Source of the DNA: Panopea generosa
Lineage: Eukaryota; Mollusca; Bivalvia; Adapedonta; Hiatellidae
NCBI GenBank assembly: GCA_029582155.1
Contig: CM055895.1
Location: 48,332,807-48,396,806, forward strand
Direction: 5' to 3'
Length of the DNA: 64,000 nt
Part shown: positions 20,071 to 48,480 of the stretch, piece after piece
How the letters are laid out: each line of letters begins with the position of its first letter
Position numbering within the stretch: position 1 is the first letter of the stretch
Position numbers and translations under genes: made by a program
The notes under the pieces: generated by a model
The model's input: only the letters and a program-made list of their open reading frames with translations
Databases searched by the model: none
Told to the model about the DNA's origin: nothing

Positions 20071-20159
20071 ATGAGTGAGGATAATGAACCCCAGAGGAAA
20101 AAAATAAAGAGGAGTGGCACGTGGGCAATGTTGGACAAAATAGACAAATGTAGAAACAG
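20071..20159 (+). CDS. GTPase exon 1 (start)
   Basis: ATG with A at -3 opens MSEDNEPQRKKIKRSGTWAM, then LDKIDKCRN. The exon ends AACAG|GTAATT with two bases carried to exon 2, which supplies the G of an AGG (Arg) codon. The KKIKR cluster could act as a nuclear targeting signal (inference). A possible acceptor (TTTTGTTTTCAG) at about 20,023-20,034 suggests that the leader is itself part of a spliced exon. A transposon begins 9 bp after the exon. Confidence 0.72.
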
Positions 20160-23100
20160 GTAATTATACACTCGGGTCCCGTTATAATGCGGTTCTTGTG
20201 TTCCACGAAACGAAACCGCTTTATAGCGGTAATTACCTCGAAAAAAATCAATGTCGGTTATTCACACCTATCGTGCTGTCCGACTCTAAGTGAATGGTAT
20301 TGTTGGCATTATAATATGATACAACGTGTATTTGGTTACAACAGATACACTTAGATATGTATAAAATTAATACAAAAAAAAGAAAAGAAAGAAAAAACGT
20401 TTTCGTGTTTTGATTATGCTAAAATTGGCAGCCATTTCCGTTTAACCCGGAAGAAGAAAAAACGGTGTCTATACAAAAAAACGCGCTTCAATTTAAACTC
20501 AACGCTGTTAGTGTTAACATATTAAAAATGTATATCTGAAGTATTAACAACAATAAAATGATAAAAATAAGTTTGTGTTTACGATCCGATAAGATACCCG
20601 CAATATATTAATACCTGTCAACTGCTTCGTTGCTTGATCACATGATCACTCGATAAAAACAAAGTTTGCATATGGTTTCCGTGTTTGGCGTGTGACAGCA
20701 TTTATTGAAGCACTCTGGATTATTACAAACTGTTAATAGTCAATGCTGGCATGAATCAATCACTTAACTATCCTTTAAACCACCATGAGGTAATGGTTGT
20801 AATAGTTTGTTATAATATAGGCTAATTGGTGAATAGAAGATGAGCGGTTATCAAATCAAAACATGGCGACGATCTATTGTTTTGTTGTCATTTGATCATT
20901 CGCGCACATTTTAAAGTTTTATATCACGACTTTTCCTACCCCGCCGAAAAATGGGAGCCAAGCAAAAACCGCGTTATAACGGAATTCGCGTTATATCAGA
21001 CCGCGTTATTACGGGACCGCAGTGTATTAGTAGAGATAATTGAAAAGGTAAATAAAATAGCCAAATATAAGAAAATGGCTTCTGACACGACTTATTATAC
21101 CCCCGACAAACGAAGTTTTGAGGGGGTATATTGGAGTCACCCTGTGGTCGGTCTGTCGGTCTGTCGGTCGGTCTGTCCGTTGCAATTTTCCTTGTCCGGA
21201 GCATCACTTGAAAAGTACTGGATGGAATTTCATCAAACGTCATACAATGGTAGAATATAATGAGAGGAAGTGCAGTGTACAAGAAACATAACTCTATTCT
21301 TGCTAATTACAGAGTTATTGCCCTTTGATATTTTTTCTTGTCCGGAGCATAACTTGAAAAGTACCGGATGGAATTTCATCAAGCTTCATACAATGGTAGA
21401 ATATAATGAGAGGAAGTGCAGTGTACAGGAAACATAACTCTATTCTTGCTAATTACAGAGTTATTGCCCTTTGATATATTTCCCTTGTCCGGAGCATTAC
21501 TTTTAAAGTACTGGATGGAATTTCATCAAACTTCATACAATGGTAGAATATAATGAGAGGAAGTGCAGTGTACAAGAAACATAACTCTATTCTTGCTAAT
21601 TACAGATTTATTTCCCTTTGATATATTTCCCTTGTCCGGAGCATTACTTTTAAAGTACTGGATGGAATTTCATCAAATTTCATACAATGGTAGAATATAA
21701 TGACAGGAAGTGCAGTGTACAGGAAACATAACTCTATTCTTGCTTATTACAGAGTTATTGTCCTTTGATATATTTCCCTTGTCCGGAGCATTACTTTTAA
21801 AGTACTGGATGGAATTTCATCAAACTTCATACAATGGTAGAATATAATGACAGGAAGTGCAGTGTACAGGAAACATAACATTTATTGATTGCCATGAAAG
21901 CTTGTACACTGCACAATAATTAAAAAGACCGTTTTTAATTTTAACAAAACCATAAAAAAATTAACAATACAAAAAACTCAATCCATAACATTCTCTTTTA
22001 TTAAGTATTTTTTTTGTCTGAAGCATAACTTTAAAACTATTGGATATAATTTAATAAAACTTCATACAATGGTAAACCATTTTCTGTCATGGCGGCGTTA
22101 GGGGGTATTCATCAACTTCAGTGATAGCTCTAGTTTAAATATGGTTCCATCTAAAATGTTTAATTTACATAAGCGTTATTTTGGTTAATTTTTCTGAGGT
22201 ATTTTTTAAGCTACTGCCATATTGCATAATTAGGGGTGGGTTCTATAATGGTATTCCTCATTTTCATTAACAATTATTTATTGACTTAACTTGACCACTA
22301 TGAAGCCTTACCCGACACCAGGTGCCGTGGCATTCCTGTCCATTGCCCTTTGCGGGTTAACCCCATATGCTTTCCGAGTATATCTAACCATTTTGGAAAA
22401 AAACACAGGTATTTTGCCAATGAGTATTTAAAAAATCCTGATGAAGAAATTAACACAACCGCTGAACTTGATAAAGAACAATTTTGGAAATTAGTGAATT
22501 CGCGAAGAAAACGGTCATCAAGTAGAGCAGGCGCTGAAATAAAATTCAATGGCGTAATGTATAGGGATAATGACAGTATTACAGAGCAATGGAAACAATA
22601 TTTTGAATTGTTATATACCCCGTCAATTGATAGTTCTTATAATATTTGGAAAGCTCTGTTGACAAAAAAATAAATTCTGTTATATCGCAGTCTAGATTTT
22701 GTATTGATGATGTCATTAATGTGTCAAAGGAAGAAGTAAGAACCTGAATTGTATCGTGTCAACACGGCAAAGCCAGTGGGATCGATAATGTTTCTTACAA
22801 ACATTACATTTTTGGCGGAAATATACAACATGTAGTTATTAATACATTAGCAAAACTATATACAGCTGTGCTGTCCCAAAGTTACATTCCACCAAACATG
22901 AACAAAGGAGTCATTATAACATTACATAAAGGCGGAAGTAAACTTAAGGATTATCCCAATAATTATAGAGCAATCACATTAACACCTACTGCTCTTAAAC
23001 TATATGAAAATATACTTCTTTCACGTTCCAAACAAAAACTTCTTTCTAATTTAAGTAACCAACAAGGGGGGTTTCAGGAAGGTCTTGGATGTTTGATGAC

Positions 23101-26100
23101 TTCCTTCGCACTAAAAGCATGTATTTTATATGGCAGAGAGCACAAGAGCAAGGTTTTTGTTTGCTTTTTAGATGCTCATCAAGCTTTTGATAGGGTGTGG
23201 CATAATGGACTTATGCTCAAATTGTTTGATAGCAGCGTTACAAACTATATATTTATGTCATTTTTAATATGTATCGTAATATGCAAAGCTGTGTACGAAA
23301 CCAAGGGTCGATTTCTGAGTTGTTCAATGTTCTTCAAGGAACAAAACAAGGGGGTAAAAGTTCACCAATATTATATCTTCTTTTCATTGATGGTCTGATA
23401 ACAGACATAGAAAGAAGCGGTCTTGGGTTGTGTATTTTTAACTTGAAGGTTGGTACCCCTACCGTTGCGGATGATATGGTTCTTGTATCATATTCAAATT
23501 CAGGTTGAGACAAAATGCTAGATATTTGCTACAAATATTCCATAAAATGGAGACATGATTATAATTCATTAAAATGTGCTATTGTTGTTTTTAATGAATC
23601 CAAACATAACTTTGATAAAAACTGCAGGTCATGGAAACTAGGATCTAGTAACATTATTCACGAAACAGAAAATTATACACATCTAGGAATTATATGTGAC
23701 AAATATATGTGTATTAGTGATCATGTTCGACAGTCAAATAATAAGTTACGTGGACTTTTTTTAAGTCTTATTAATAGTGGCTTACATCCGCATGGTCTTA
23801 ATCCTTTGACAACATTAACACTACATAAGTCAATCGTTATACCAAAATCCCTATATGGTTGCGAATTATGGAATTCATTAACTAAATCAAATATTATACA
23901 ACTAAAACGAGGACATAGATTCTGTATAAATTTTATCCAAAATATCCCACAATATGTAAATACGGATTTTGCTTTAATCTCTATTGGTGTAACTTCACTT
24001 GAAACGGAAATTGACTATGCAGATTCCCGAATAAGTATATTGCTAAGCATATTTTAGTGATGATAAACAAACATTAGGTTTTATTCCTGACATCTATAGA
24101 ATATTAACGAAGTATGATCTATATAATTATTTGGTTAATTATTCTGAAACGGCAATATTTCCATCCAAGTATGCATGGAAATATATTCTTAGACAAATAG
24201 TGCTAATACATTACTCAAATACAATGTTAATGAGGTTAGGTGACAAGATGGGTACATCATATGTCATGAATATGTTTAGCATAAATAGGCCTTGCTTCCT
24301 ATGGCAATTAAGTAGGAAAAATCAGTATGTAAAAGCACAATGTTTTACAGCAGTGTCACTACTAAGTAACTGCAATCGTTTACAGCTGTACAGCTATGTA
24401 ACAAATGTAATACGCTTGTAGATAATTTAGTACTACATATTGTTCATTTTGTATTGCAAACACTGTTGAAAGAAATGAGCTTTGGCACGCAGTTATAACG
24501 ACTTGTTGTCTTCAGGCCTTTAATTCATTTATTAAAAAGACGCCAAAAGATCAGATTTATGCACTGCTTTCCAGGCTTAATAAATATTTATCTGACATTG
24601 AACAGATTGAAGATATATTATTTTTCAATATTGGGATAATTCACAGTATTTTAAAGTAACTTTTATCGATACTGCTAATGTTTACTGTTTGTTACTCAGT
24701 GTATGATCAATTTCTTACATTTCATTTCGGTAAGATACATAAGGTTCATTGTTGTCATTAGTCTATCACTGGGTCTTGCATTTTATTTCGGTAAAATTCA
24801 TTATAGATAGACAATGTTATTATTTCACTTATATTAGTGTAAGGTATACTATATGACAGTTAAAAAGCTATACTGATTTTTATAAAATCATAATTTATTT
24901 AGTTATTTTAACAAATCCATCATGTTACGAATACTCTTACAATGTGACATCATAATTATTAGGCGTATCTTATGTTCATTCTTCACTTGTAACTCATTGT
25001 ATTTTGTTCATTTATATGATTAGCTCAGTCGGTTACGCGTCTGACTATCAATCTCTTTTTGGACTGAATGAATGTGAATAAAACTTCACAGATGTGTTCA
25101 GCATCATCAACAGAATGAACAGAGATAAGAACCATATCTCTGGGTTGCATTTTGGTAGAACTATGGCCCTTTTCGACTTAGAAAATCTGGTTAAAGTTTT
25201 TGAGCAGGTACATATTTCATCAACCTATCATTGGATATGAATTAAATTTCACATGTGTATCCTCAAAGGAAAACACAGAAATAAAAACCATAACTCTGGG
25301 TTTGATTTTTACAGAGTTATGGCCCTTTCATCAGATTTTTTTTTAAGTTTGTAGTACAAGTCTATGGCATCTCGTCCAATATGATTTTTACCACACTACA
25401 AACTTGTGCAATATATTCCCATATTGTACAAAACACTGTAAAATAACCTTATATATTATCACTGTCTATTTCCAAAAGTGAAAGGTCTTTGACCAAGTAT
25501 CTACCTGTATTGTTACCAGGTACAAGGAGGTCCTTAGTAAGCTGAAGATAGCAATTGAAGATGAGATCACAAGGAATCCAGATAGCAGGGTGAGGGAGTT
25601 GAGGTGAGACTTTATTTTATACCAAAGAAGCAAAATAGATAAAGTGACAGCTGACATATGCATGTATTGTACAAAACAAAATAATATATTTTACCCATTA
25701 CTAATACCGTTTTTTATCTATACGTGAGCTAAATACAATATTGACAGTGAACTATGATAAAAGGAAATGATGTCATTTGGGTATAATTTTTCTTTGTTAC
25801 TTGAGTGTAACTTCTCTGTGTAATATGCGGACTATATAAGTAAATATTTTGTCCTTTCCAAAATTATGTAAACCATGACATGCCTGCAAATATTTTAATT
25901 TTATAATTTAATGTAAATTTTCAAAAAAGTATGATTGGTTTTCACTCAGAAAGTTTATGTATTAAATCAGTTATTATATATTGTAAATATTATGGAGATA
26001 ACAATCTTTAAGGGCTACTCTCCTAATTTTCATATTTAAAAAATAATTGACAGTTTTCATTAAATTAGTGGTGCCGGCCCGGCTTTGAAGAAGTAGATGC

Positions 26101-29100: not shown

Positions 29101-32100
29101 AATTCCAATGACATCTCAAAAACTGATACCGGTAAGCCTCATATGCTCATATAAGTAAATTTGATCCATATGAACAAGGGTTTTATGTTTGTTTAAATGA
29201 AAGGGCTAGAACTATTGGGGCTCAGTAAGGTGACTTTGTTTCCATCTATAAGTTCTTCATAGGCTCGATGCATTCAACTTTTGCAAGTTACAGGTGAAAT
29301 CAGGTGACAACTTGGGGCCCATTTGGGAGGTTTTGTTCTTGGATATCTTTTGTGTGTAGTATGCATGCCTAGTTACAATTTGCATCTTTTTAAAACAAAT
29401 TTACTTTCCTTAAAATTCCCATGACACAAATTGGTATTTTGTTATATAAAACCATCTTGCTGCCACAATAAATCCATTACAAATACAGATGGAGGAGTGA
29501 CCATAGTTTTCAGAGAGCTGCAAGTTCAGAGTTATTTTGTCATCATTCATGTGTCCCATAATGGGCCATTTATAATGCAAAACAGTACCAAGTGTCATTT
29601 TCATAGTTTTATGTAAAATGTGTTTAAAGATGTGGACTTTAATAACAAATTAGGAATTCAAAGTACAGTCAAGAAACTAAGACAGGTGATAGATGATACA
29701 GTCAAACCTGTGTAAGTGGTCACCTGTATTGAGCAGCCACTTGTCTTAAGCAGCCACATTTGCTACTTCCCATTTTTATGGTTTCAAAGCAAATAAACCT
29801 GTATTAAGCAACAACCTGTTTTAAAAGGCCATGTTGCATCAGCCAAGACTGGCTGTTTAAGACAGGTTTGACTGTATAAAGTTTAATATATATGTCAAGG
29901 TCAGTATTGACATACCTGTTCATTAAATTTATTTTGCTGCTTTTTACACTTGGTATCGTTTTGCATGGACTGAAGTTAATCTTTATGTAATGTAAGATGG
30001 AGCCATTTGTCAAATGGTAACTTTCTGCATTACTGTTTGTAACGTATTTCATGTACAAGTTGGAGGAAAATATGTACCTCATGTCGTATTGATCATTTTT
30101 GCTCCAGGAATACTCTCAGTTGAAACAAACGTGTTTAAGGGTTTCTGTCTGATTAGTTTAATCCGGCCTAATTTAAGTCCACATTCTGCTATGAATAATA
30201 TTTGCTACATCCTTACGTTTATTATATCAAACTATTACACTAAAATATGTTATAATTCTTACTAAATGGACGAACTCCCTTTGTTAGTATATTTTCTTAT
30301 AATACTCTCTCCTTGTTTATTTATCATCACAGCTTCTTCAGGTGATGTGTCGATCATTGACTTTTCTGCAGTATAACCGTAAAGTACCCATGAAGGGTTT
30401 CTGGTCCTAACTCCGATGCTTTACAACTGGACCATGTGCTCCAGATAGGGACTTGAACTTACAATAGCCTGATGTCCTCAGTTTCATCTTATGAACCAAT
30501 GTACTTTTGCATCAGGTCTGTTGCCATTTTATGTAAAAAAAAAAAAAAAAAAAAAAAAAAATTATAAAAGTTACACGAACATTCCTTCAATAAATCAGTT
30601 ATATTTCAGTGAAGAGATATCAAGCTTGGAGGAAAATATTACATTCCCTCAAACCAAAATTGGAATGACTGGGTCAACAGGAGTTGGAAAGTCAAGCCTT
30701 ATAAATGCCATCTTGGATCATAAAGAATTGTTGCCTACATCTGGGAACAAAGCATGTACATCTGCTGTCATAGAAGTTATGGAGAATACTCTCGGTACAG
30801 ATTTCGAGGCAGAAATAATATTTTTGGAAGAGGAAGTATGTTTTTAAAAATTTTAAGTCATACATTATTTTTATAGGAATCACTGTATAATGTTCTGCTG
30901 TCTATTAGTTGGTATGGTATCTCATTTTTTCACAAGTTACGTTTGTTATTCAAGACCACACACTTTGTATTTTACAACTGGTGATAAACTTGTTTAAAGG
31001 TATTCTTAGTTTACATGTATGTTGATGAAATCTGATTCTACCCGACTCACGCTTGTTTAAGGAGTGGGGACTGTGCTGTTAATGTATACAACATGCTTAT
31101 ATGATTGCTTCCTGTGCAGGGCTGGAAAATTCCACTTGTCCGCTCGCCGTGAAGAGTCAACAGTTGGTCAGGACGAGTAAGATTAAGAAATTGTTTTAAT
31201 ATTTCTTTGGTTTTAAGCATTTGATAAAGAATGTTGGAATTGGAGGACGGGTACTTTTTATAAGAAATTTCAAGCCCTGCTGCGTCATGTCTATTTGACC
31301 AAAATGAGTAAAGGTAACCATTTATTCATTTTGTGGCATTTTGACGGAAACTCATTGGTAATTCTATGACAAAGGACTTAGTTCACGAATGGCCAAAAAT
31401 GGCCCTGTCTCAGAATTTAATGAAACTTGTACAACATATCACCCATTGTTTATAGTAAATAAAATAAAACATATTTAATTGATTTAAATATTTGTTTTGT
31501 TACCATGGCAACTGTTTGTAAATTAACTGATTTTGTAATAATTTCTATATATACGCATAATTAAACGTGTTAAATGAATAATTACTAGGATTTGTAAACC
31601 ATAAGGTGATTGTCAATATACTCAACCTACAAAACAATATTTAGTGTATAAAAATCTTATTGCCATAGTAACCAAATGATTGAATTTTTAATAATAATCC
31701 ATTTTTAATGCCATTTAGTGTGTTCTATTTAGGAATTATTCATAATTGGTTCAGTCTCATATCAAAAGTATAGCAAGTCTAACCTTTCATCCCACATGTA
31801 CACTTAAACTTAATTATCGAGTTACCATGGCAACAATAGTAATAAAAAAAAATGAATATGAGACTAATGGGAAAAAATTGAAAAGTGTTACCATGACATA
31901 TTTTGATATCTTTCAGTGATATTTAAACATAAAAAATAACTGTTATACATTTCTTAACCATACTCCTATAGATGTGTACATTAAGTAACAGTTACTGTGT
32001 ACCAGTGGATTTTATGATATACAATAGAACTTCATTGGCTTGAACATGGATGGCTGGAACACCACGCATGGCTAGAACCACTTATCTGGTTCCGGCCAAA

Positions 32101-35100: not shown

Positions 35101-38100
35101 ATTTATTTAATAATTGTGTGACATTTAATGTGTATGTGACATTTATGTTATGGGTATGTGACATGTGCTTTGTAATTACCATTTATGTTGTGAGTATGTG
35201 ATATGAAATGTGTATGTGAATTTATGTAATGATTATATGACATGTAATTATGTTTGTAAAATTTTGTGGAACGGGTGTGTGATTGGACAAAATTATATTC
35301 ACAATATAGCATATTAAGTACAAACAAAGAGTATTACTCAAATCACTAATATGGTCCGTCATATTTCGCATTCAGGTTAATGCACTGATGGAGTTTTCAA
35401 TTAAATATTGAAAATTAGTAATTTTATTTACATTTAAAGCAATCTTGTATAGTTTTCTTATTAAGGATATAGGGAAAATAAACTGTTACTTTCAAAATTG
35501 CATTATTGTTAACAAATTTACTTCAAAAGGAATGGAAAAATGAGCTACGCATACTCCTGCAAGATTTAAGAAACCAGGACGGCCAAATAGGGAATTGTTC
35601 AACAGACACAGGAGAAGAATATTATGTATCTCTTGCTAAGATACAAGCAGTTTATGGTGGCGATATAAAGATAACCAGTGCTGAAGATCTGTCGCAGTTG
35701 ACGAGTCCAATCACAGCAAGCCTCGGGAAAGTTGAGAAGATCAAGTGTGCAAGTGTAAGAATAATTCCAATTTTTGTAATAGCTAAATTGTCAAATGCTG
35801 TGTCAAAACTGTTATTCAGGTCTTTGTTATGTGTAGTGTTTGGTAATAAATGGTCCTGTACCATTCTAGCAGGGTACACAGTAATATTTATAGCCAAAGT
35901 ATTAATTGGCAAAAAGTTAATTACTATGAAACAAATTGAATTTTTCAGTTTCCCATACCATTCCTCTATATACAAAGAGACCCGTAAAGGAACCCTATAT
36001 ATCCCAGGCCCTTGATTTGTCCAAATTTCATTCACCCACTCGTGGGGATTTACAAATTAAAGATTGCTTTGTTCATACATTGTATGGATGCGAAAATATA
36101 GATTGTGTGTTTACCCCGAGTATAATTTTGTATTAAAGACGTTTCTGCGGGTTGTTACTGCGCATCGCTACGCGCATAGTTCCTTTCTGTTACTTTCAGT
36201 TTCGAGGTCTAATTTCGCCGTTTGGTTAATTAAAAGTCGAGTCGCATTAGGATATTTACAAAGCGAAGTATTTTCATTTCGAGATGTCAGAAATGTAAAT
36301 TTTGCCAAGGAAGCGATCGAAAATCATGGAAGATTATATTGTTTTTCGTTCTAAACCACCAGAAGTGCTTGTACATAACGAAGTCGAAGAAACAACTACG
36401 AAATATAATCAACACTCGTAGTGGTAACCATTTCGGATCAACTCATTTTCGGATACGAATCATTTGTGAATTTGTTCCAAAGCGCTGAATATATAATGAA
36501 TTTACCTGAAACAATATTATTCATACCGGGATGGAGACAAGGAAGAATGAGTCTTGAATTCTGACTTTAAGCTGACCTGAAGCAGGAAAAGTCCAATATC
36601 ATTTAGCATCAACACAGAGTATAAGGTTAGTTGATGCTTTATCATAACTCACTGATCAATATCGATGTATCACATAAAATGATAATTTACTTTATGATTT
36701 CTAGAGATGAACAACTATAAAAAGTGATTGATTGGTTGAATATTTAGCGTCATTTTCATGCCATCGAGGGCTAACACCCGATCACCTAACCACTGTTTCC
36801 TGGAATTAACCAGTATTTGAGCACACCCCATCTCCGCAAGTAACTGATAACTTTCCCACTTGAATCAGTGGTGAGAGACGATAGATAAAGAGACATAATG
36901 TTGTATATCTATCATCCTGGAGACTGTTGCTGGGCGGGATTCAAACAGTATTCTTACATTGAGTAAATGTTAAAAATAAATTTATACACCATCACGTTCT
37001 GTGTCTCCTGTTAAACAGAAAATTGTTACATGAATTATGAAAATAAGAAACTATTCAACACATTTCAGAAATGCTAAACAGAGGCTCAGGTTACAGATGG
37101 ATTGAGATGTCGGCGCTTTAAATGCCTGTAGTGGTTTCATTAACTATGAAGAGACAATCAATATTGTGACATAGACAACGTATACAGAAGCACTAAATGA
37201 AAGAGTGACAATCATCAAAAGGGACCAATGGTAATTATTAATGTAGTTTAACTGTTTCAGCTTATTTCTACTATGGAATAAAACAAAATAATCATGAGCA
37301 CAACAGATGATCTGAGGGGGATCAAACCTGTGACTACTTGTTTGGCACACCCAATATCAGTGCAACTGACAACTTTCCCACTTGAATCAGTGATTAAAGA
37401 TAAATGAACAAGAGACACATTGCTGGAATTTGCATATATTTAAATCATCACAGAGACTGGCCAAGCAGGGATTTGAGCTTGCAACCCCTTGACTGCTTGT
37501 TACATAACATAACAGTTTCATTCAGTAAAAAATGTCCACATACATGCAAGTTTATTACATTTTGTACAATGGTTTGAACATAGATATCATAACAGGAATT
37601 GCTGCTCAGTAATAGCCCTTGAGTTGTCAAACTATACCCATATATTGTGCTGTTTTATTAAAGTACATTGTCGTTTTTTTAGCCAGACCGATGAGCTCAG
37701 TCAATAGAGCACGATATTTCTAGCTCAGGGTTGAGAGTTTGATACCTGAGGCTGGCTAACTTACAGTGCTAACAGTCATTCAGATGGGACTTTAAACTGA
37801 GGACCTTTATGATGGTGCTTATACACTAAGCAAAAGAACCAGGTGAAACATATGATTAGGTTTCTATGATATTTTTCCTGCACTATCCCCCACAAACCTA
37901 AAAAGACTAAACTGTTCACTCTTCTGGGTGCATCACCCAAATGGGAAACTGGTGCTGATGTAAATTAAGCTTACATACAAACAAACATTGTCATTTATTT
38001 CTTTATCTCATATAAGCTTTCTTTAATTTTCAGTGATGAAGTCTGGCAAGTAGTACACCAGGACCAGGCCAATTTATTACAATATGTGTTGCCATAAGCA

Positions 38101-41100: not shown

Positions 41101-44100
41101 AGCCACTTCAAACGTTCTGTCTTCTTATAGTGCCTCTGTACACCTAAGCCACTTCAAACGTTCAGTCCTCTTATAGTGCCTCTGTACACCTTAGCCACTT
41201 CAAACCCTCAGTCCTCTTATAGTGCCTCTGTACGCCTTAGCCACTTCAAACCTTCAGTCCTCTTATAGTGCCTCTGTACACCTTAGCCACTTAAAACCCT
41301 CAGTCCTCTTATAGTGCCTCTGTACACCTTAGCCACTTCAAACCACTTCAAACCCTCAGTCTTCTTATAGTGCCTCTGTACTCCTTAGCCGCTTCAAACC
41401 CTCAGTCCTCCTATAGTGCCTCTGTACACCTTAGCCACTTCAAACCCTCAGTCCTTTTATAGTGCCTCTGTATGCCTTAGCCACTTCAAACCCTCAGTCC
41501 TCTAATAGTGCCTCTGTACGCCTTAGCCACTTCAAACCCTCAGTCCTCTTATAGTGCCTCTGTACGCCTTAGCCACTTCAAACCTTCAGTCCTCTTACAG
41601 TGCCTCTGTACGCCTTAGCCACTTCAAACCTTCAGTCCTCTTATAGTGTCTCTGTACACCTTAGCCACTTCAAACCCTCAGTCCTCTTAAAGTGCCTCTG
41701 TGCACCTTAGCCACTTCAAACCCTCAGTCCTCTTTTAGTGCCTCTGTACACCTTAGCCACTTCAAACCGTCAGTCCTCCTATAGTGCCTCTGTACACCTT
41801 AGCCACTTCAAACCTTCAGTCCTCCTATAGTGCCTCTGTGCACCTTAGCCACTTCAAACCTTCAGTCCTCTTATAGTGCCTCTGTACACCTTAGCCACTT
41901 CAAACGTTCAGTCCTCTTATAGTGCCTCTGTACACCTTAGCCACTTCAAACATTCAGTCCTCTTATAGTGCCTCTGTACACCTTAGCCACTTCAAACCCT
42001 CAGTCCTCTTAAAGTGCCTCTGTACACCTTAGCCACTTCAAACCCTCAGTCCTCTTATGGTGCCTATGTACACCTTAGCCACTTCAAACCTTCAGTCCTC
42101 TTACATTGCCTCTGTATACCCTAGCCACTTCAAACCTTCACTCATATGAATAATTTATGAAGATAAAATTATTTGACTTGCTGGTTGTTGAAATTTTTTT
42201 TTTAAAAGTCCCAATTTTAACCCATTTGAGACCCCTTATGAAAATTAAATCATTTGTTTTGTCACATGGAATGCATGCAGTTAAGCCCCAGTTACACCAG
42301 GCTTACAACCAGGTTACGATCTAGCTGCAATAAAAAAATGTTGGAATAGTGGGCAAATCGTAGAAAGAGCGCGTGACAAGTCGCAGAGGTCGTTGTTGAT
42401 TGTCTGGGCAAAATCAGCAAAGTCGATTGACATGTTCAAAACTTCTGACCTGCGATTCCAAATAGCAAGAGGTCACACACAGGTCTTACAAGGTCATACC
42501 AACAGTCACGCATGGACGCACCTCCAATCGTACATGATCGCAGGTCAAGTAGTCGCACAATTTTATTTCTTACATGTGAATATTCATGTATATTGTTACA
42601 TGCTTTTCTGGTTGAAGCACTGGGTTCGGTAAGCTTAATTGTTAAAGCACCTGACTATCAATTCAGGGTCCATACATTTTACAGCTGTAAATCTCCCACC
42701 TCTGAATATGTGGGAAAGTAGTCATAGACTTTCAGGTGTGTTTAGTACCAATAAAATGCCTAGCGTATCACAGGATCAATAATATAGGTGCACTTGTTGC
42801 CATTATAAAACAGAAATTAAGTTAAAAAAAGCACAAACCTCCCCATACAAACAAAGAATTTGTTTGAAGCATAACCAATTTTTTTATATCGTCAGCATGT
42901 TACAGCAACTATGTAAGAATTATTTAATCAGTAAGAGTGTTTTTGCTTCCTGATGATGTATGTCTATTTCACACTGGATTTTGTGTGTTACATATTATGT
43001 TTGTTTTTAAAGGTATACTGCAATACTAATGTTATACAATTATTGTGCTCTATTTATTTTGCCAATTCAAAATTTTATATTAAAATTGTTGTTTGTTCAA
43101 GGCTGAAGAACTAAGTGAGGAAATATCCATCTATACAGAAGAAAGTAATTCCTACAAATCTGGACAGTATTGGCCGATTGTGAAGCAGGTGGTCCTCAAA
43201 TTGCCAAACTGTGATGCGTGTAGCAGTGGAGCCATCCTGGTAGATCTTCCTGGTATAGGTGACACCAATGTTGCCAGAAATAAGAAATCAGAAGAGGTTT
43301 GTATAGAATAGTATGTCTGCCTTGTATCCAGTGGAACTACATCATTAACTAGATTAACTATCGACCATGGTAATACATTGTTCTAGTGAGTATCAACACT
43401 GCAATCCAAGATTTCATTATCTCTTTTCAATGGATTTGATGTGAGAACAACTACCACTCCGCCCACTGGCCACATGGTATTGTTTGTCCTGGTAAATACA
43501 ATATAGTGTTTACTTAGACATTGTTTGCTTGTCTATGGAAAATGGCAGTTAGCAAATAATATCAATTGCTGATTGGATTATGGACAGGTTTTTGATTGAC
43601 AGCCCTCATCAATAACTTAGGATTACAGGACTTGTAACACTTCAGTCCATGGTTTATAATCTATCTTAAATTGATTGAGCATAGGATCAAATTGATGGTT
43701 TGATTATCTACCTCCAATTAAATGGAAATATTGTCAAATTTCAATATGATTTATTTTTAGCTCAACCTTTTTTTTATAAAAAAGGGATGGTATTGTATCA
43801 CTCTGGTGAAGGGGTTGACTACCCCAACTATCACTAACATTGACTCGTCAGAATTGCATCTTTAATGGTTTAAGGAAAACTTTCACGTTTCTCGTAGATA
43901 ACCTTGAAGCATTAGCGTATGACTGTCTTGTTTAAGGAAAACTTTCACTGTTCTCATAGTTAACCTTGAAGCATTAGTGTATGGCTGTCCAGTTTAAAGA
44001 AAACGTGCACTGTTCTCATAGTTAACCTTGAAGAATTAGTGTATGCCTGTCCAGTTTAAGGAAAACTTTCACGGTTCTCATTGTTAACCTTGCAGCATTA

Positions 44101-47100
44101 GTGTATGCCTGTCCAGTTTAAGGAAAACTTTCACTGTTCTCATTGTTAACCTTGAAGCATTAGTGTATGACTGTCCACTTTAAGGAAAACATTTACTGTT
44201 CTCATAGGTAACCTTGAAGCATACGTGTATTACTGTCTGTCCAGTTTAAGGAAAACTTTCACTGTTCTCATAGTTAATCTTGAAGCATTAGTGTATGACT
44301 GTCCAGTTTAAGGAAAACTTCCGCTGTTCTCGTAGGTAACCTTGAAGCATTAGTGTATGACTGTCCAGTTTAAGGAAAACTTTCACTGTTCTCAAAAACT
44401 TCTGTGGATTGATGGGAAATAAATGACACACTGTAGCTGGTCCCATGGAGTTAGTTTTGATTTCTCTACATTGTTTGAAATGTTCTTGATTACAATGTTT
44501 TGTAGTATATGAAAGACTGTACAGCCTTGTGGATTGGGTCAGTAATAAAGAGAGCCACTTGTGACCAGTTGGCGAAGAACTTACTGGGGGATAATTTTCG
44601 AAAACAGCTACATGTGGATGGAAAGTATGGGACATCTGATACCCTGGCATTCATCTGTACAATGACTGATGATGTTTATCCAACAGACATTATTAGGTGA
44701 GATAACAAATACACACAAACAACAAGTTGATAATATTCAGCTAGTGATTCCACTACTGCTCATTCCATGCTAGTAACCGCTGTTGAAAGCTGGGCAATAG
44801 TGTAATGGATAGGGTGTTGGCCACTCACGCCAGAGGTTGCGGCTTTGACCCCCCCCCCCCACCCACTCCTTTGGCCCATTGCCTCTCATAAAACAACATT
44901 CAGTACTGGTTCTACCTAGCAGGAAGCGGACTCGAGAGTGGTTCAAATAAGCTCTGAGCTTTTATCACAATCAAGCTAAAATAAATTAGTACAAACTAAT
45001 CTAACTAATGACAGTTGTCACTTTGTCTGTATATATTTATTGTACTCAACCTACCTAATTTTATGTCTGGTTTATATCCATTGAATTGTTAATACACTGC
45101 TGTGATATTTGGTCTTTGTTTGCTCTCTAGCACTTGCATTTTTCTTGAATCTTGAAACTTCAGGGATAATTTAGCTCTACCAGCTTAAGATCAGAAGAGC
45201 ATGATATGTTATGGTTACTTTCTATTGTTTGTCTTTATATCATCTGTTTACAATTGTTGAAAGATACTGATTTTTGCCATGTAAACACTGGAACACCATT
45301 AGCTCCTAGTTCATCCATACCAAATTTCTTGAATTTATCATATTGAACTAATATGATATAAATACTTGTAAGCATTTTAGTCTTCATTTTCATCCCGTCT
45401 GTACCAAACTTGGTTAGATGTTTAGTATGCCGTAAGACTTGGATGAATTTTAGAATCAACCATAGCAAAACAGAAATGACAGGGTTAGATGCCTCAATTT
45501 AATGAAACTGGTGATTGTTGCCTTGGTAACACTGTAGCACCTTTAGTTAAGTTTGAATTGTGACCAAAATTGGTTGAAATGTTATTGGCCATAGAGCTCT
45601 GGCGAGTGTTTGTGGTGGCCATATCTGACCAGAATGACAATTATTATGGGCATTGATTGTTAAAAAAATCAGAAAATTGCAAGGTAAATAAATTAAAACC
45701 TTCATTTTGATATATATTGTGGACTAGAATAGTCAAAATAATTTTAAATACTAAAGCTCAGCTGACCTTGATATGACCAGATTTATTGCTCTTGAATGAC
45801 TGGTAAATGCTGATTTTTGCATTGTCAACAACACAGAACCTTCAACTTTCATTCTATCCAAACCAAATCTGTCAATCAATTGTATATGACAATAAAATCT
45901 TGGATAAATTCTTGAACAGGCAATGTACAGAGATAATGGTCAAACAGGGCATTGGACCTATGTTTTTTATTAATATTATTTATATAGCTAAAGTAAAAAT
46001 TTGCTTAAAGGTCATAGTAAAAGAGGTTTTTTTTTTCTGATAATAAAGACAATAAACGGATCATACCTGTGATGGAGATTGTAACCAGAGAGACTATGAT
46101 GGTGTAACCATTAAGCATCGTCTTAAACAAAAGAAAATAAAAACTTGGGTCTGTTTAAGTAAAATTTCATATCGATTTTTGCTAATAATAACTGGCATTA
46201 CAGTGAAACCCTTGCAAGCGGTCACCTCTATTAAGCAGTCACTTGTCTTAAGCAACCACATTTGCAATTTCCCATTTTTAAGCCTTCAGAGCAATTTAAC
46301 CTGCATTAAGCAACAGTCTCTTTTAAAAGGCCACTTTTACTCCTTCCTTTGATTGACTGCTTAAGACAGGTTTGGCTGTATTTAAAAAAATCATATATAG
46401 AATGGAAAACGCGCTACCAGCCACACACATTAATCCTGCATAAATATTCGTATTGACAGAGCTTTGAAACTTCAAAATGAAACAAGGGAACTTCAGGAAA
46501 ATATGAGACAGGCTCGTGACCGCATAAAATGCATCGAAAGAAAATTTAAAGCTGACAAAGCGCAACTGGACAGAGAGCTGAGAGAGATAAAAGAGAAGGC
46601 TGATAGGGCAGAAAATTTGAATCTGCACCTTGATCCAGACAGTTCCAATCAAAAGGTAAAACAAAAATGTTTGTATTAGTAAGCTCAAATATAATTTACA
46701 ATATGGTCATTTGAGTTACAAATGTAGTTAATTCATATACGCATTCATAAATTTCTTAGCTGTAATCAATTAAGTAATTTTGTTATTTTTATCACAGACT
46801 GAAGTGTTTATCATTCCATAATCAACTTTTGGATTTAAACCATGCATTTCAAAGTTCAGTTTGAACTAATAGGTCATAGATAATTGAATTATTGTAATCC
46901 ATAAGGGATATAATAAATTTATACCACAAACCTATGTTCTTAACAAGATGGTTTGTCAATAACAGTTTTAAATGGTGTGTTGATGAAATGGATATGGTGT
47001 TGGCTTCTCACACAAGGAGTTTGGGTTCGATTTAAAACTGGCTGGAAAAAACAACAACCAGTACTTGTCCAAACCAGGCAATACACTTGAGAGAGATCCA

Positions 47101-47504
47101 CTCTGAGATTTCTCTCTCTGATCAAGCTAAAATTAATTAGCATAAATCATCAATTCTGGGGTCAATAGTTTGGTGCATGGTTACACTGGCAGATGTCAAA
47201 GGTCGAAATAATTTGATTTGGAGTTAGAACAGTCTTGTTTAAATATATACAGAACTTAGCTGAAATCTGTCATATTTTTGTTGCTAAGAATTCCCTTAAC
47301 CCTAAAGTTAAATAAAGATCAGAACATTACGTCAAGAACAAATTAAAACCTGCCTAATATTCTACAGTTAAACACAGATTTGAATAAAAAATACATGTTG
47401 GTTTTATATTCAAGGATTATGATGATGATCTAAAGTCAAAAGAAGAACGCATTGTCAAACTGGATAAAGAGATTAAGGACTTAAAGGTTGAAAAAGAAGG
47501 GCAG
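20071..47504 (+). CDS. Large GTPase, SLIP-GC (NUGGC)-like; eight exons, C-terminus not seen
   Basis: Exons 20,071-20,159; 25,520-25,603; 30,610-30,835; 35,530-35,754; 43,102-43,296; 44,506-44,696; 46,460-46,655; 47,415-47,504 join in one frame with GT/AG borders throughout, giving 432 residues. In order: basic N-terminus (QRKKIKR), a helical segment, P-loop GSTGVGKSS near residue 80, switch-I-like KACTSAV, EWKNELRILLQDL, G3 DLPGIGD near residue 260, G4-like TMTDD near residue 325, then a coiled coil. This order and wording match the nuclear GTPase SLIP-GC family (dynamin superfamily). Vertebrate SLIP-GC is about 800 residues, so about half is missing here. A role in nuclear or immune biology is inferred from the vertebrate member only. 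Confidence 0.85.
20169..21024. mobile_element. TA-flanked non-autonomous Tc1/mariner-type element in intron 1
   Basis: The left end is CACTCGGGTCCCGTTATAAT and the right end, reverse-complemented, is CACTGCGGTCCCGTAATAAC; TA flanks both sides (20,167-68 and 21,025-26). Inner copies of GCGTTATA/GCGGTA extend the terminal repeats. At 856 bp it has no transposase frame. It was inserted within the first ten bases of intron 1. Confidence 0.85.
21096..22135 (+). mobile_element. Composite element with five 147-bp tandem repeats
   Basis: It begins TATACCCCCGACAAACGAAG and carries a (GGTCTGTC)n tract at about 21,146-21,180. Five tandem copies follow, each with CTTGTCCGGAGCAT, GGATGGAATTTCATCAAACT, ATACAATGGTAGAATATAAT and GAAGTGCAGTGTACA; the marker GGATGG recurs at 21,220, 21,366, 21,513, 21,660 and 21,807. 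A decayed sixth lies at about 22,010-22,080. It ends near GGCGGCGTTAGGGGGTATTC. A unique 5' block, a tandem core and a short 3' block resemble pearl/Helentron-associated elements of bivalves (inference). A fragment of the same start occurs at about 58,120. Confidence 0.7.
22305..24662 (+). mobile_element. Decayed, 5'-truncated LINE with reverse transcriptase
   Basis: Reverse-transcriptase blocks appear in order: HRYFANEYLKNPDEEI and AELDKEQFWKLVNSRRK (linker), SYIPPNMNKGVIITLHKGG, DYPNNYRAITLTPTALKLYE, QGGFQEGLGCLMTSFALKAC, CFLDAHQAFDRVWHNGLMLK, QGTKQGGKSSPILYLLFIDG, then VADDMVLVS, the catalytic box with the usual Y-ADD replaced by V-ADD. A thumb-like tail follows (THLGIICDKYM, IPKSLYGCELWNS), then CNKCNTLVDNLVLHIVHFC near 24,390-24,450. 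There are frame changes near 23,300 and 23,505 and a stop between 24,057 and 24,131. No endonuclease domain is present. It lies in GTPase intron 1. Confidence 0.85.
24663..25009. other. Probable 3' untranslated remainder of the LINE, AT-rich
   Basis: Two short similar phrases (CATTTCATTTCGGTAAGATAC at 24,719 and CATTTTATTTCGGTAAAATTC at 24,779) suggest a direct duplication of about 60 bp. No tail or target duplication could be fixed. Confidence 0.35.
25010..25360 (+). repeat. tRNA-like head joined to a dispersed repeat
   Basis: GATTAGCTCAGTCGGTTACG at 25,019 is A-box-like, but no B box follows. It runs into a unit with GTGTTCAGCATCATCAACAG, AACCATATCTCTGGGTTGCA and ACTATGGCCCTTTTCG, repeated imperfectly once more (ACCATAACTCTGGGTTTG). 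The same family occurs at 51,078-51,441 and 59,611-59,886. Confidence 0.55.
25520..25603 (+). CDS. GTPase exon 2
   Basis: Acceptor TTGTTACCAG|G and donor GAG|GTGAGA bound 84 bp. After completing the Arg split with exon 1, it reads YKEVLSKLKIAIEDEITRNP then DSRVREL, and ends with AG, which pairs with the first base of exon 3 to make AGT (Ser). The amphipathic pattern is helical. An alternative donor at the GGTGAGG upstream is possible but would break the frame into exon 3. Confidence 0.72.
25604..26329. other. Intron 2, first part
   Basis: AT-rich; no further exon or repeat recognised. Confidence 0.5.
26330..26443 (+). promoter_or_regulatory. Possible cryptic promoter and short start exon inside intron 2
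   Basis: GCCGGAAGTGC at 26,338 matches an ETS-site core. Forty bases later ACATGGCGGCC opens MAASSKSCLAIVYDKRVHIQT (26,378-26,443), then a stop. The codons are GC-rich compared with everything around them. No good donor is seen. It may be the start of an alternative transcript, a piece of a captured gene or a repeat. Confidence 0.25.
26775..27290 (-). mobile_element. Probable LINE 3' fragment with decamer tail
   Basis: The left end carries three copies of GACAAGTTTA on the + strand (minus: TAAACTTGTC), the sort of simple tail that ends some LINEs. Reading right to left on the minus strand, broken frames give SMTQACHREVEMPCNLVVSD. No reverse-transcriptase box remains, so the call rests on tail and texture. 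Confidence 0.4.
27305..27450 (+). repeat. Dispersed repeat, short copy
   Basis: GTGATCGCCATATGACCGTC and CTTCTTCTCTGAAACC resemble the longer copy at 8,815-9,030. Confidence 0.4.
28139..29330 (+). repeat. Diverged tandem repeat of about 290 bp, at least four partial units
   Basis: Start phrases recur: ATCATCTTGATGTCTGGAGA (28,141), TCAACTTGAGATTCGGAATC (28,425) and ATCATCTTGAGATCTGAAGT (28,724). Each is followed by TCATAACAG or TATAACAATTGAG, AAACTGATA..., and CAGTAAGG-GGATTTTGA-type phrases. The third unit is interrupted by the MITE at 28,778-29,031. Confidence 0.6.
28778..29031. mobile_element. MITE with long TIRs, copy 2
   Basis: The left end CACTAAGGCCATAATAAATT leads into AATTGCTAGATTATCATCC; the right end, reverse-complemented, is CACTTTAGGTTATTATAAAA, then TAATTGCTAGATTATCATCC. 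The inner 20 bp match perfectly. The core is A-rich simple sequence. Same family as 10,019-10,236. Confidence 0.8.
29699..29874. mobile_element. 176-bp TA-flanked MITE (Tc1/mariner type), copy 1
   Basis: The left end is CAGTCAAACCTGTGTAAGTG and the right end, reverse-complemented, is CAGTCAAACCTGTCTTAAAC, with TA on both sides (29,697-98 and 29,875-76). A second copy is at 46,201-46,378; both are in introns of the GTPase gene. Confidence 0.88.
30610..30835 (+). CDS. GTPase exon 3 with the P-loop
   Basis: Acceptor TATATTTCAG|T and donor GAA|GTATGT bound 226 bp. It reads EEISSLEENITFPQTKIGMT, then GSTGVGKSSLINAILD (G1, nucleotide phosphate binding), HKELLPTSGNKACTSAVIEV (switch I region with the conserved Thr), and a strand-rich EAEIIFLEEE. 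The exon ends in phase 0. SLIP-GC proteins have the same order, with a G-ACTS switch and a following E-W segment, which here opens exon 4. A homopolymer A run lies at 30,536-30,561 before the acceptor. Confidence 0.9.
30836..31370. other. Intron 3, first part
   Basis: No exon or repeat edge recognised. Confidence 0.5.
32024..32115 (+). mobile_element. Left-end fragment of the Tigger-like family
   Basis: ACAATAGAACTTCATTGGCT, GGCTGGAACACCACGCATGG and ACTATTTAATTTCTAT parallel the first 110 bp of the element at 18,480 (CAGTAGAACTTCGATTGCTC, GGCTGGAATACCACCGATCG, CTATTTAATTTTTAT). No right end was found. Confidence 0.6.
32560..32627 (-). mobile_element. tRNA-like relic, SINE head or tRNA pseudogene
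   Basis: The minus strand reads TTTGTGGTATAGTGGTTAGA (A box) and GAGTTCAGTCCCACC (B box), with a possible anticodon arm GCTTTCAGAGC. The acceptor ends do not pair, so it is not a working tRNA. A poly-G/poly-A tract follows on the + strand side at 32,516-32,555. Confidence 0.5.
33644..34309. other. Intron 3 spacer
   Basis: No exon recognised; scattered phrases of dispersed-repeat type, not resolved. Confidence 0.4.
34310..35250. repeat. 40-bp minisatellite, about 23 degenerate units
   Basis: The unit contains GTATGTGACATTTATTTAAT and GGTTATGTGCCATGTTAT. The marker GTGACATTTA recurs at 40-bp steps (for example 34,621 and 34,661). The TGTGACAT core appears twice per unit, so a 20-bp ancestor is possible. 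The array ends about 280 bp before exon 4. Confidence 0.92.
35530..35754 (+). CDS. GTPase exon 4
   Basis: Acceptor TTACTTCAAAAG|G and donor GCAAGT|GTAAGA bound 225 bp, phase 0 on both sides. It reads EWKNELRILLQDLRNQDGQI, then EEYYVSLAKIQAVYGGD, ITSAEDLSQLTSPITAS and LGKVEKIKCAS. The E-W-x-x-E-L opening directly after the P-loop exon is characteristic of SLIP-GC-type GTPases. Mostly helical, charged sequence. Confidence 0.85.
35755..36134. other. Intron 4, first part
   Basis: The exon 4 reading frame stays open past the donor to 36,015, but that part is hydrophobic AT-rich intron translation, not family-like. Confidence 0.5.
36780..37485. repeat. Two direct copies of a dispersed repeat
   Basis: Copies at about 36,780-36,960 and 37,310-37,485 share ACAACTTTCCCACTTGAATC or ATAACTTTCCCACTTGAATC, an AGAGACA phrase, and a final CTGG-CAAGCAGGGATTTGAGC or CTGGGCGGGATTCAAAC. 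The last phrase looks like an inverted B box, so minus-strand SINE relics are possible. A similar CCAGATAGGGACTTGAAC is at about 30,442. Confidence 0.5.
37684..37990 (+). mobile_element. tRNA-derived SINE
   Basis: The head has ATGAGCTCAGTCAATAGAGC (A box) and GGGTTGAGAGTTTGATACC (B box) at tRNA spacing. A body of about 230 bp follows, ending in ACATACAAACAAACA, a short simple-repeat tail. No target duplication identified. Confidence 0.65.
38681..39236 (+). repeat. 184-bp tandem repeat, three units
   Basis: GGCCATTTTATGAAAAGGGA marks units at 38,681, 38,866 and 39,049, and GGCC recurs at 39,233. Each contains AGTTTGTTATAGTGCCTCTT and AATTCTCCGCATTAGAACT. A diverged piece reappears at 39,470-39,570. 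Confidence 0.88.
39905..42140. repeat. 46-bp minisatellite, about 48 units
   Basis: The unit contains CCTCTTATAGTGCCTCTGTA, then CGCCTTAGCCACTTCAAACC and CTCAG. Spacing of TATAGTGCCTC is 46 bp (40,024 to 40,070). One unit near 41,340 repeats ACTTCAAACC internally. The array lies inside GTPase intron 4, about 960 bp before exon 5. Confidence 0.97.
42141..43101. other. Intron 4, last part
   Basis: Contains a possible tRNA-like SINE fragment at about 42,622-42,770 (GTAAGCTTAATTGTTAAAGC as A box; CAGGGTCCATAC as a poor B box). Otherwise no recognised feature. Confidence 0.4.
43102..43296 (+). CDS. GTPase exon 5 with the G3 motif
   Basis: Acceptor TTTGTTCAAG|G and donor GAG|GTTTGT bound 195 bp, phase 0. 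It reads AEELSEEISIYTEESNSYKS, then GQYWPIVKQVVLKLPNCDAC and GAILVDLPGIGDTNVARNKK. DLPGIGD is the G3 (DxPG) motif that contacts Mg and gamma-phosphate. YWPIV followed by a strand and the DLPG box repeats the layout of SLIP-GC proteins. Confidence 0.9.
43871..44395. repeat. 62-bp minisatellite, about 9 units
   Basis: The unit contains TAAGGAAAACTTTCACTGTT, CTCATAGTTAACCTTGAAGC and ATTAGTGTATGACTGTCCAG, at 62-bp steps (43,871, 43,933 and on). One unit near 44,230 is extended by a CTGT duplication. It ends about 110 bp before exon 6. Confidence 0.93.
44506..44696 (+). CDS. GTPase exon 6 with a G4-like motif
   Basis: Acceptor TGTTTTGTAG|T and donor ATTAG|GTGAGA bound 191 bp; it ends with AG, completed by A of exon 7 (Arg). 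It reads YMKDCTALWIGSVIKRATCD, then GDNFRKQLHVDGKYGTSDTL and AFICTMTDDVYPTDII. FICTMTDD sits where the base-specificity motif (N/T-K-x-D) is expected after a beta strand; here Met stands in the Lys position. Confidence 0.88.
44791..44997 (+). mobile_element. SINE relic in intron 6
   Basis: GGCAATAGTGTAATGGATAG (A-box region), GTTGGCCACTCACGCCAGAG and GGTTGCGGCTTTGACCC (B box) are followed by a body with CAGTACTGGTTCTACC and AATCAAGCTAAAATAAATTA. The copy at 46,973-47,150 shares the body phrases. Confidence 0.68.
44998..46200. other. Intron 6, middle
   Basis: AT-rich; phrases such as TTTGCCATGTAAACACTGGA and ATCCATACCAAATTTCTTGA recur in diverged form (TTTGCATTGTCAACAACACA and ATCCAAACCAAATCTGTCAA near 45,816-45,880), suggesting an old direct duplication of roughly 540 bp. 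No exon. Confidence 0.4.
46201..46378. mobile_element. 178-bp TA-flanked MITE, copy 2
   Basis: The left end is CAGTGAAACCCTTGCAAGCG and the right end, reverse-complemented, is CAGCCAAACCTGTCTTAAGC, with TA on each side. The body matches the copy at 29,699 (AAGCAGTCACTTGTCTTAAG; TTTCCCATTTTTA). It ends about 80 bp before exon 7. Confidence 0.87.
46460..46655 (+). CDS. GTPase exon 7, coiled coil
   Basis: Acceptor TATTGACAG|A and donor AAAAG|GTAAAA bound 196 bp. After the split Arg it reads ALKLQNETRELQENMRQARD, RIKCIERKFKADKAQLDREL, then REIKEKADRAENLNLHLDPD. Charged residues with Leu/Ile/Met at heptad-like spacing indicate a coiled coil inserted after the G4-like segment. The exon ends in phase 0. 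Confidence 0.87.
46973..47150 (+). mobile_element. SINE relic in intron 7
   Basis: TGATGAAATGGATATGGTGT (A-box region) and GTTTGGGTTCGATTTAAAAC (B box) head a body with AACAACCAGTACTTGTCC and GATCAAGCTAAAATTAATTA, matching the copy at 44,791. Confidence 0.65.
47415..47504 (+). CDS. GTPase exon 8, coiled-coil continuation
   Basis: Acceptor TATATTCAAG|G and donor GGGCAG|GTATGA bound 90 bp in phase 0. It reads DYDDDLKSKEERIVKLDKEI, then KDLKVEKEGQ, extending the charged coil of exon 7. It is the last exon I can place; the next would have to start in phase 0. A 45-bp minisatellite starts about 190 bp later. Confidence 0.78.
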
Positions 47505-47689
47505 GTATGATGTTTTGGTTGTCTACGAGCAATACTTTGGTGATACACTACAGAGATGAAAAAAAAAATTCAGGAGTACCCATCTTAGTGTTCAAAGTTA
47601 AGTCATCTACATTCTTTAAGCTGGAATATTCCAGGGATATGAAGGGCTAATCTACGAACTTAAATGTAGGCTATTCCTTGATTAATGAG

Positions 47690-48480
47690 GGCTATTGAAT
47701 GAACCCCAATGTGAGCTATTCCAAGAATCAGGTGGACTATTGGGTAAGCCCCAAAGTGAGCTATTCAAAGAATAAGATGGTCTATTGGGAAAACCTCAAT
47801 GTGGGCTGCACCAAGAAGATGGACTATTGGGTAAACCTCAATGTGGACTATTCCAATAATTGGGTGGACTATTGGGGTAACCCAGTATGCGCTTTTCCAA
47901 GAATAAGGTGGGCTTTTGGGTAAACCCTAATGTGGGCAAATCTCAATGTGGGCTATTCCAAGAATAAGATGGGCTATTGGGTAAGTCCCAAAGTGGGCTA
48001 TTCCGAGAATAAGATGGACTATTGGGTAAGTCCCAAAGTGGGCTATTACAAGAATAAGATGGACTAATGGGTAAGTCCCAAAGTGGGCTGTTCCAAGAAT
48101 AAGATGGACTATTGGGAAAGTCCCAAAGTGGGCTATTCCAAGAATAAGATGGACTACTGGGTAAACCCCAATGTGGGCCGTTCCAAGAATAAGGTGGACT
48201 ATTGGGTAAGCCCCAATGTGGGCTATTCCGAGAATAAGATGGACTATTGGGTAAGTCCCAAAGTTGGCTATTCCGAGAATAAGATGGACTATTGGGTAAG
48301 TCCCAATGTGGGCTGTTACAAGAATAAGATGGACTATTGGGTAAGTCCCAATGTGGGCTGTTCCAAGAATAAGATGGACTATTGGGTAAGTCCCAAAGCG
48401 GGCTATTCCAAGAATAAGATGGACTATTGGGTAAACCCCAATGTGGGCTGTTCCAAGAATGAGGTGTGGACTATTGTATG
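47690..48480. repeat. 45-bp minisatellite, about 17 units
   Basis: The unit contains AATAAGATGGACTATTGGGT, then AAGTCCCAAAGTGGGCTATT and CCAAG, at 45-bp steps (48,241 and 48,286). Degenerate units extend both ways (about 47,630-48,670). Because 45 is divisible by three, one frame on each strand stays open (+: 132 codons; -: 200 codons, both 15-residue periodic). Not called as protein. Confidence 0.95.

What the first reader, a model, noticed from the sequence alone, without database searches (positions are those of the whole stretch)
20071..47504. Hand-assembled eight-exon SLIP-GC-like GTPase
Eight short exons spread over 27 kb join with consistent phases (2,2,0,0,0,2,0,0) and carry P-loop, switch I, EWKNEL, DLPGIGD, a G4-like box and a coiled coil. 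Chance agreement of all phases and motif order is very unlikely. Vertebrate SLIP-GC is a nuclear GTPase linked to germinal-centre B cells. A homologue in an animal without such cells raises the question of an older role, perhaps in innate defence as in other dynamin-superfamily GTPases (inference).
Basis: partly seen in the sequence, partly recalled or inferred. Interest (0 to 1): 0.8.

Follow-up and report, generated by a model that had tools for sequence, protein, structure and literature searches.

The report
Fast-evolving duplicated SLIP-GC-like GTPase gene
The eight exons are real and form the front part of a large dynamin-type GTPase gene, one of at least nine recently copied versions in this animal whose protein sequences change faster than their own introns, as genes caught in an arms race with pathogens or mobile elements often do.

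Summary
Seven of the eight recur in nine of nine gene copies of this genome and exon 1 in eight, splice sites included, so chance is excluded. The gene is longer than reported: two further coding exons lie 3.5 and 19 kb beyond the window. Pfam files it under Dynamin_N. The name SLIP-GC rests on recall; no NUGGC sequence was available to test it.

The new result is evolutionary. Nine young segmental duplicates and one divergent copy were found. Nonsynonymous divergence exceeds intron divergence in 15 of 16 pairs tested. Codon site models strongly favour a positively selected class (2dlnL 119 against at most 6.6 in 16 simulations), also among copies without a seen lesion. Exons 3-6 carry no stop or frameshift in nine copies, against about 22 expected without constraint. 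Best reading: a functional, diversifying large GTPase, plausibly in cell-autonomous defence. That function is inferred.

The parts
20071..20159 (+). Exon 1 (ATG; 89 nt, ends phase 2), MSEDNEPQRKKIKRSG...; RKKIKR (20095-20112) is an NLS-like basic patch
   Evidence: also read in copies B (frameshifted) and D-I. The NLS consensus is recalled
25520..25603 (+). Exon 2 (84 nt, phase 2 to 2), YKEVLSKLKIAIEDEITRNPDSRVREL
   Evidence: 50% identical stretch in divergent copy J
30610..30835 (+). Exon 3 (226 nt): P-loop GSTGVGKSS at 30671-30697; ACTSA at 30752-30766 is a candidate switch I (label recalled)
   Evidence: Pfam Dynamin_N match begins at residue 75
35530..35754 (+). Exon 4 (225 nt), EWKNEL...; strongest per-exon selection signal
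   Evidence: M2a vs M1a 2dlnL 34.9
43102..43296 (+). Exon 5 (195 nt): variable loop, then conserved WPIVK...DLPGIGD (G3 at 43243-43263)
   Evidence: 2dlnL 21.2
44506..44696 (+). Exon 6 (191 nt, ends phase 2): YMKDCTALWI...; G4-like TMTD at 44659-44670 (TKTD in divergent copy J)
   Evidence: no per-exon signal (2dlnL 1.1), though 2 of 18 high-posterior sites lie here
46460..46655 (+). Exon 7 (196 nt): coiled coil (judged by eye); 15 nt shorter than in seven other copies
   Evidence: 2dlnL 32.5, M0 omega 3.07
47415..47504 (+). Exon 8 (90 nt): coiled coil (judged by eye); donor GTATGA, which read through would be Val-stop
   Evidence: 2dlnL 15.7. The gene continues outside the window

Best explanation
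This is the 5' part (432 codons, eight exons) of a large-GTPase gene of the dynamin superfamily, SLIP-GC-like by recalled motifs, spanning about 63 kb or more with at least ten exons. It is one of at least nine segmentally duplicated copies on three contigs. Shown: conserved exon structure, GTPase motifs, young duplicates, maintained reading frames in the G domain, and a positively selected class of sites, mainly in exon 4, the front of exon 5 and the coiled coil. Inferred: the protein binds GTP, assembles through its G domain and coiled coil, possibly in the nucleus, and its diversifying surfaces contact a fast-changing partner, most likely a pathogen component, as in Mx- and IRG-type cell-autonomous defence.
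For: Exon model and motifs; Dynamin_N; closest solved relative by sequence Slr0869, 1.9e-07, a bacterial dynamin-like protein by recall; nine copies plus divergent J; dN above intron divergence in 15 of 16 pairs tested, out of 36 possible; E3-E6 nonsynonymous 178 of 2563 sites vs intron 795 of 17548, Fisher p 4e-7; M2a vs M1a 2dlnL 119.2 for eight copies, 73.1 for the five copies without a seen lesion, 67.1 for the G domain; 16 simulations reach at most 6.6; E3-E6 have no lesion in nine copies vs about 7 stops plus 15 frameshifts expected; against divergent copy J, pN/pS over the aligned parts of E3, E5 and E6 is 0.23-0.45, so long-term constraint exists. A basic K-K/R-x-K/R patch stands in 7 of 8 copies with E1.
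Against: No expression, functional or infection data. Counted dN/dS pooled over four disjoint pairs is 1.27 with CI 1.00-1.66, so the gene-wide mean barely clears 1; 8 of 36 pairs lie below 1; synonymous sites are also nominally faster than introns, though not significantly (p 0.12); exons 1 and 6 show no signal. Only 10 of the 18 high-posterior sites keep posterior above 0.95 when lesion-bearing copies are left out. Four of nine copies carry a lesion (B E1, D E7, E E7, F E8), and F has lost the P-loop lysine. All nine have Met for Lys in the G4-like box. Gene conversion is not modelled beyond per-exon trees.
Confidence: 0.55

Rival explanations
1. Relaxed constraint: the duplicates are redundant and decaying, and dN close to the neutral rate is what pseudogenes show.
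For: Four of nine copies have a stop or frameshift in E1, E7 or E8; F lacks the P-loop lysine and D has DLPCIGD; pooled dN/dS 1.27 with CI from 1.00.
Against: Neutral decay should not push dN above intron divergence (1.11-1.89 fold in 15 of 16 pairs) or give a site class with omega about 7-10; E3-E6 have no lesion in nine copies against about 22 expected; the signal stays in copies without a seen lesion.
Confidence: 0.15
2. Positive selection is real but the opponent is internal: a nuclear GTPase diversifying against transposable elements or other genome conflict, not an infectious pathogen.
For: NLS-like patch in 7 of 8 E1 copies; vertebrate SLIP-GC is called a nuclear GTPase in a title cited by two papers; LINE-like frames lie in and beside this gene (label recalled).
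Against: No direct evidence for nuclear location or for any element as target; most immune GTPases under selection are known against pathogens (recalled).
Confidence: 0.15
3. Artefact of gene conversion: exchange between copies inflates the site-model test.
For: Copies E and H on one contig are near-identical, and trees differ between exons; recombination is known to inflate such tests (recalled).
Against: Per-exon trees keep the signal in E4, E7, E5, E8, E2 and weakly E3; pairwise dN against introns needs no tree; the few gaps between intact copies are in E4 and E7 and are multiples of three.
Confidence: 0.1
4. A dynamin-superfamily gene that is not orthologous to vertebrate SLIP-GC but a separate invertebrate lineage.
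For: No NUGGC sequence was compared; Pfam gives only the superfamily; the G4-like box TMTD is non-canonical.
Against: The G-domain motif string and the exon reading RNEYSKSEIKRDFKAGL in the divergent copy resemble SLIP-GC-like proteins as I recall them; a lead, not a test.
Confidence: 0.2

Closest known systems
Vertebrate SLIP-GC / NUGGC (nuclear GTPase of germinal-centre B cells)
   Same: Dynamin-type GTPase motif string (resemblance from recall); multicopy genes in fish too, likely tandem (PMC5638112, passages read)
   Different: Here no MHC class I hit in the genome (no positive control), many young copies under diversifying selection, Met in place of the G4 lysine; expression unknown
Mx proteins (dynamin superfamily, antiviral)
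   Same: Large GTPase; codon diversification and copy-number variation are named as hallmarks of antiviral genes in the abstract of PMC4687636 (start of abstract seen in the listing)
   Different: No Dynamin_M or GED match in the part read; no antiviral test. PMC11789081 on Mx origins has no hit in its main text for SLIP-GC, NUGGC, mollusc, mollusk or bivalve (term search)
Immunity-related GTPases (IRG/IIGP) and GBPs
   Same: P-loop GTPases of cell-autonomous defence (recalled)
   Different: IIGP only 17.8 bits, below its cut-off of 24; no GBP match among 14 families
Slr0869 and a bacterial dynamin-like protein (PDB 9em9, 7zw6, 2j68)
   Same: Best solved relatives over the G domain by sequence
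   Different: Bacterial; weak similarity (E 1.9e-07 for 9em9, 8e-04 for 2j68)

Membership tests
Dynamin superfamily | Dynamin_N domain above the curated cut-off | tested here: met
   47.7 bits against 27; hand-joined divergent copy 73.3 bits
Dynamin superfamily | P-loop GxxxxGKS/T and DxxG | tested here: met
   GSTGVGKSS and DLPGIGD in the window gene; copy F has lost the lysine
Dynamin superfamily | G4 box [TN]KxD | tested here: not met
   TMTD in nine of nine copies A-I; TKTD in divergent copy J. The superfamily call rests on Dynamin_N, not on this box
SLIP-GC / NUGGC | Full-length similarity and reciprocal best match to vertebrate NUGGC | not testable with these tools
   No eukaryotic protein collection held; resemblance is recalled
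SLIP-GC / NUGGC | Nuclear location | tested here: inconclusive
   Only an NLS-like basic patch in 7 of 8 E1 copies
SLIP-GC / NUGGC | Expression in germinal-centre B cells | not testable with these tools
   No RNA data
GBP | GBP N-terminal domain (Pfam) | tested here: not met
   Not among 14 Pfam families listed at E up to 10
IRG (IIGP) | IIGP above cut-off | tested here: not met
   17.8 bits against 24
Mx / classical dynamin | Dynamin_M and GED after the G domain | tested here: inconclusive
   Not matched by the 432 aa nor by the 79 aa of the two downstream exons, but the C-terminus is incomplete

The most novel reading that the evidence does not exclude
An invertebrate SLIP-GC-like family is a nuclear, GTP-driven restriction system in open conflict with pathogens or mobile elements, diversified by duplication and positive selection of exposed loops and coiled coil; the vertebrate germinal-centre role is a later co-option of this older defence GTPase.
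Probability: 0.3. Interest if true: 0.8.

Novelty: new member of a known kind. Interest (0 to 1): 0.55.

Why it matters
What the vertebrate SLIP-GC GTPase did before germinal centres existed looks unanswered in the held open-access library: none of the papers listed is about an invertebrate SLIP-GC family (searches listed only part of their hits). Strong diversifying selection with maintained frames in an invertebrate family points to a conflict role, and the selected sites name the loops to test.

Tried and rejected
Rejected: the 45-bp repeat at 47663-48476 as a coding exon (one frame reads MDYWVSPKVGYSKNK-like units, but stops occur in the window and stops or frame changes in copies B and E). 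Rejected: E8 as the certain 3' end. No close viral or prokaryotic relative: 19 and 167 pattern matches gave none at E 1e-3. Led nowhere: two papers on SLIP-GC looked up by id are not held; a DNA pattern for a basic stretch found nothing; the last exons of the gene (the 4 kb of L089 show only repeat-like frames). Structure prediction was not tried, because the spliced protein is not read letter for letter from the DNA. The C1-set hits (21) were not followed up.

Rows dropped before counts: copy E from the site models (frameshift in E7, near-identical to H); E1 of B and E7 of E (frameshifts) from pairwise counts; C has no E1; stop codons in D and F set aside; divergent copy J left out of the selection tests; partial extra places of the family (for instance C7:60.86, C7:61.10 and C3:22.36 Mb) left out of all tests. 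Only 16 of 36 pairs were compared with introns.

Full report
What is there. The window is C2:48332807-48396806 of a 1.474-Gb genome in 39 contigs. Motifs: GSTGVGKSS (residues 79-87), ACTSA (106-110), DLPGIGD (256-262), TMTD (325-328), then a coiled coil judged by eye. Pfam gives Dynamin_N 47.7 bits over residues 75-280.

More than chance. A search of the genome with an early joined protein found 55 matching stretches. Most group into nine copies with the same exon order (A the window; B C2:87.09 Mb; C C7:57.91; D C3:22.47; E C7:60.11; F C7:60.52; G C7:60.80; H C7:61.23; I C7:61.41 Mb) and a divergent copy J at C7:14.42 Mb, 47-57% identical in E3-E6; a few partial places remain. E2-E8 were read in 9 of 9 copies and E1 in 8 of 9, with conserved splice dinucleotides. 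Introns align too: between the window and B at about 90-96% in the long blocks, so these are segmental duplications.

The gene is longer. Copy J has further candidate coiled-coil exons and exons reading ICARARNEYSKSEIKRDFKAGL and NLRVFCCSSTEYQKMKNLLTDDGPPQ. Matches to both types lie downstream of each of the nine copies A-I. For the window gene they are C2:48400334-48400453, VDKIDKEIAGYEKNVAAICALKRNQDSKKVIQQDFKEGLM, and C2:48416054-48416170, ELKRNRPGGDDGDNLPVFCCSSVEYQKIKDPWSVDGKPK, both beyond the window. The first type has 17 matches in the genome, so the family is larger than nine. The true 3' end was not found.

Selection. In 16 of the 36 pairs I compared E3-E6 with flanking introns: dN exceeded intron divergence in 15 (ratio 1.11-1.89); the exception is E-H, nearly identical (0.27). 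The pairs share copies and are not independent. Over all exons, counted dN/dS was above 1 in 28 of 36 pairs and below in 8. Pooled over four disjoint pairs it is 1.27, CI 1.00-1.66; two of these four (G-I, F-H) have bootstrap P 0.015 and 0.013 for pN at or below pS, the other two 0.29 and 0.72. E3-E6 nonsynonymous differences are 178 of 2563 sites against 795 of 17548 intron sites (Fisher p 4e-7); synonymous 41 of 710 (p 0.12). I coded GY94 site models. For eight copies: M0 omega 1.74 (2dlnL against 1: 19.0), M1a lnL -4230.80, M2a -4171.19, 2dlnL 119.2, 15% of sites at omega 6.9. Sixteen simulations, eight each at omega 1 and 0.3, gave at most 6.64. Copies without a seen lesion (A, C, G, H, I; C lacks E1): 73.1; G domain: 67.1, and 46.8 for those five copies; per exon with its own tree: E4 34.9, E7 32.5, E5 21.2, E8 15.7, E2 11.2, E3 6.7, E1 1.1, E6 1.1. 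Eighteen sites exceed posterior 0.95 (naive empirical Bayes): 5 in E7, 4 in E4, 3 each in E5 and E8, 2 in E6, 1 in E3; 10 of the 18 also do so with the five copies alone.

Not decay. Scaled to intron substitutions and intron indels, no constraint would give about 11 stops and 23 frameshifts over E1-E8, and 7 plus 15 over E3-E6 (tree of eight copies). Seen: one stop each in D (E7) and F (E8), one frameshift each in B (E1) and E (E7), and none in E2-E6 of nine copies. Length changes in E4 and E7 between intact copies are multiples of three. Against J, pN/pS over the aligned parts of E3, E5 and E6 is 0.43, 0.23 and 0.45. So the family is constrained in the long run and diversifies among recent copies.

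What it works like. By sequence the nearest solved structures over the G domain are Slr0869 (9em9, 7zw6) and, more weakly, a bacterial dynamin-like protein (2j68); ABC transporters match only around the P-loop. Pfam does not file it with GBP, IIGP or AIG1. The likely mode, inferred from the superfamily, is GTP-dependent self-assembly with the coiled coil as an interaction arm. The selected sites sit mainly in exon 4, the loop before WPIVK in exon 5 and the coiled coil, away from DLPGIGD, as expected of a contact surface; one, residue 83, is inside the P-loop, at posterior 0.89 in the five-copy set. All nine copies carry Met where J has the G4 lysine; its effect on nucleotide binding is unknown.

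Name and literature. SLIP-GC likeness is recalled. Fourteen papers hold both SLIP-GC and GTPase and 58 hold NUGGC or the full name (40 listed); none listed is about an invertebrate SLIP-GC family; one holds SLIP-GC-like. From passages read: fish NUGGC is multicopy in Cottus and a tandem array is reported in stickleback (PMC5638112); salmon of families ranked high for pancreas-disease resistance show higher SLIP-GC expression, read there as B-cell activity (PMC7316828, PMC6972705). The host is probably a bivalve mollusc (my recall of its repeats, no call); no MHC class I hit was found, but that search rang in no control, and 21 C1-set hits exist.

Noticed in passing
22290-24659 (+), intron 1: Broken reverse-transcriptase-like reading frames of a LINE element inside the first intron; label from recall.
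   Followed up: no
53166-56886 (-): Second LINE-like element on the minus strand with endonuclease- and RT-like frames; label from recall.
   Followed up: no
63403-63892 (-): Tyrosine-recombinase-like reading frames at the window end; label from recall.
   Followed up: no
11871-17751: 103-bp tandem repeat, 57 copies, with GC skew about +0.47 over 6 kb.
   Followed up: no
39921-42140 and 60713-63090: Two 46-bp tandem arrays of 48 and 52 copies; the first has GC 0.47 and skew about -0.5 and lies in intron 4.
   Followed up: no
47663-48476: 45-bp minisatellite just after exon 8 that reads as a 15-residue repeat in one frame, with stops; also in copies B and E.
   Followed up: yes
G000 C7:60.11 Mb and 61.23 Mb: Copies E and H are almost identical although 1.1 Mb apart: a very recent duplication or an assembly duplicate.
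   Followed up: partly
G000 C4:52295703 and C4:52424713: Two equal-scoring open-frame hits 129 kb apart; the 318-aa frame read at the first matches EHD_N and Dynamin_N.
   Followed up: partly
G000 C11:43.4-43.6 and 64.7-65.1 Mb: Clusters of other Dynamin_N-matching stretches, perhaps another expanded GTPase family (one of them read).
   Followed up: no
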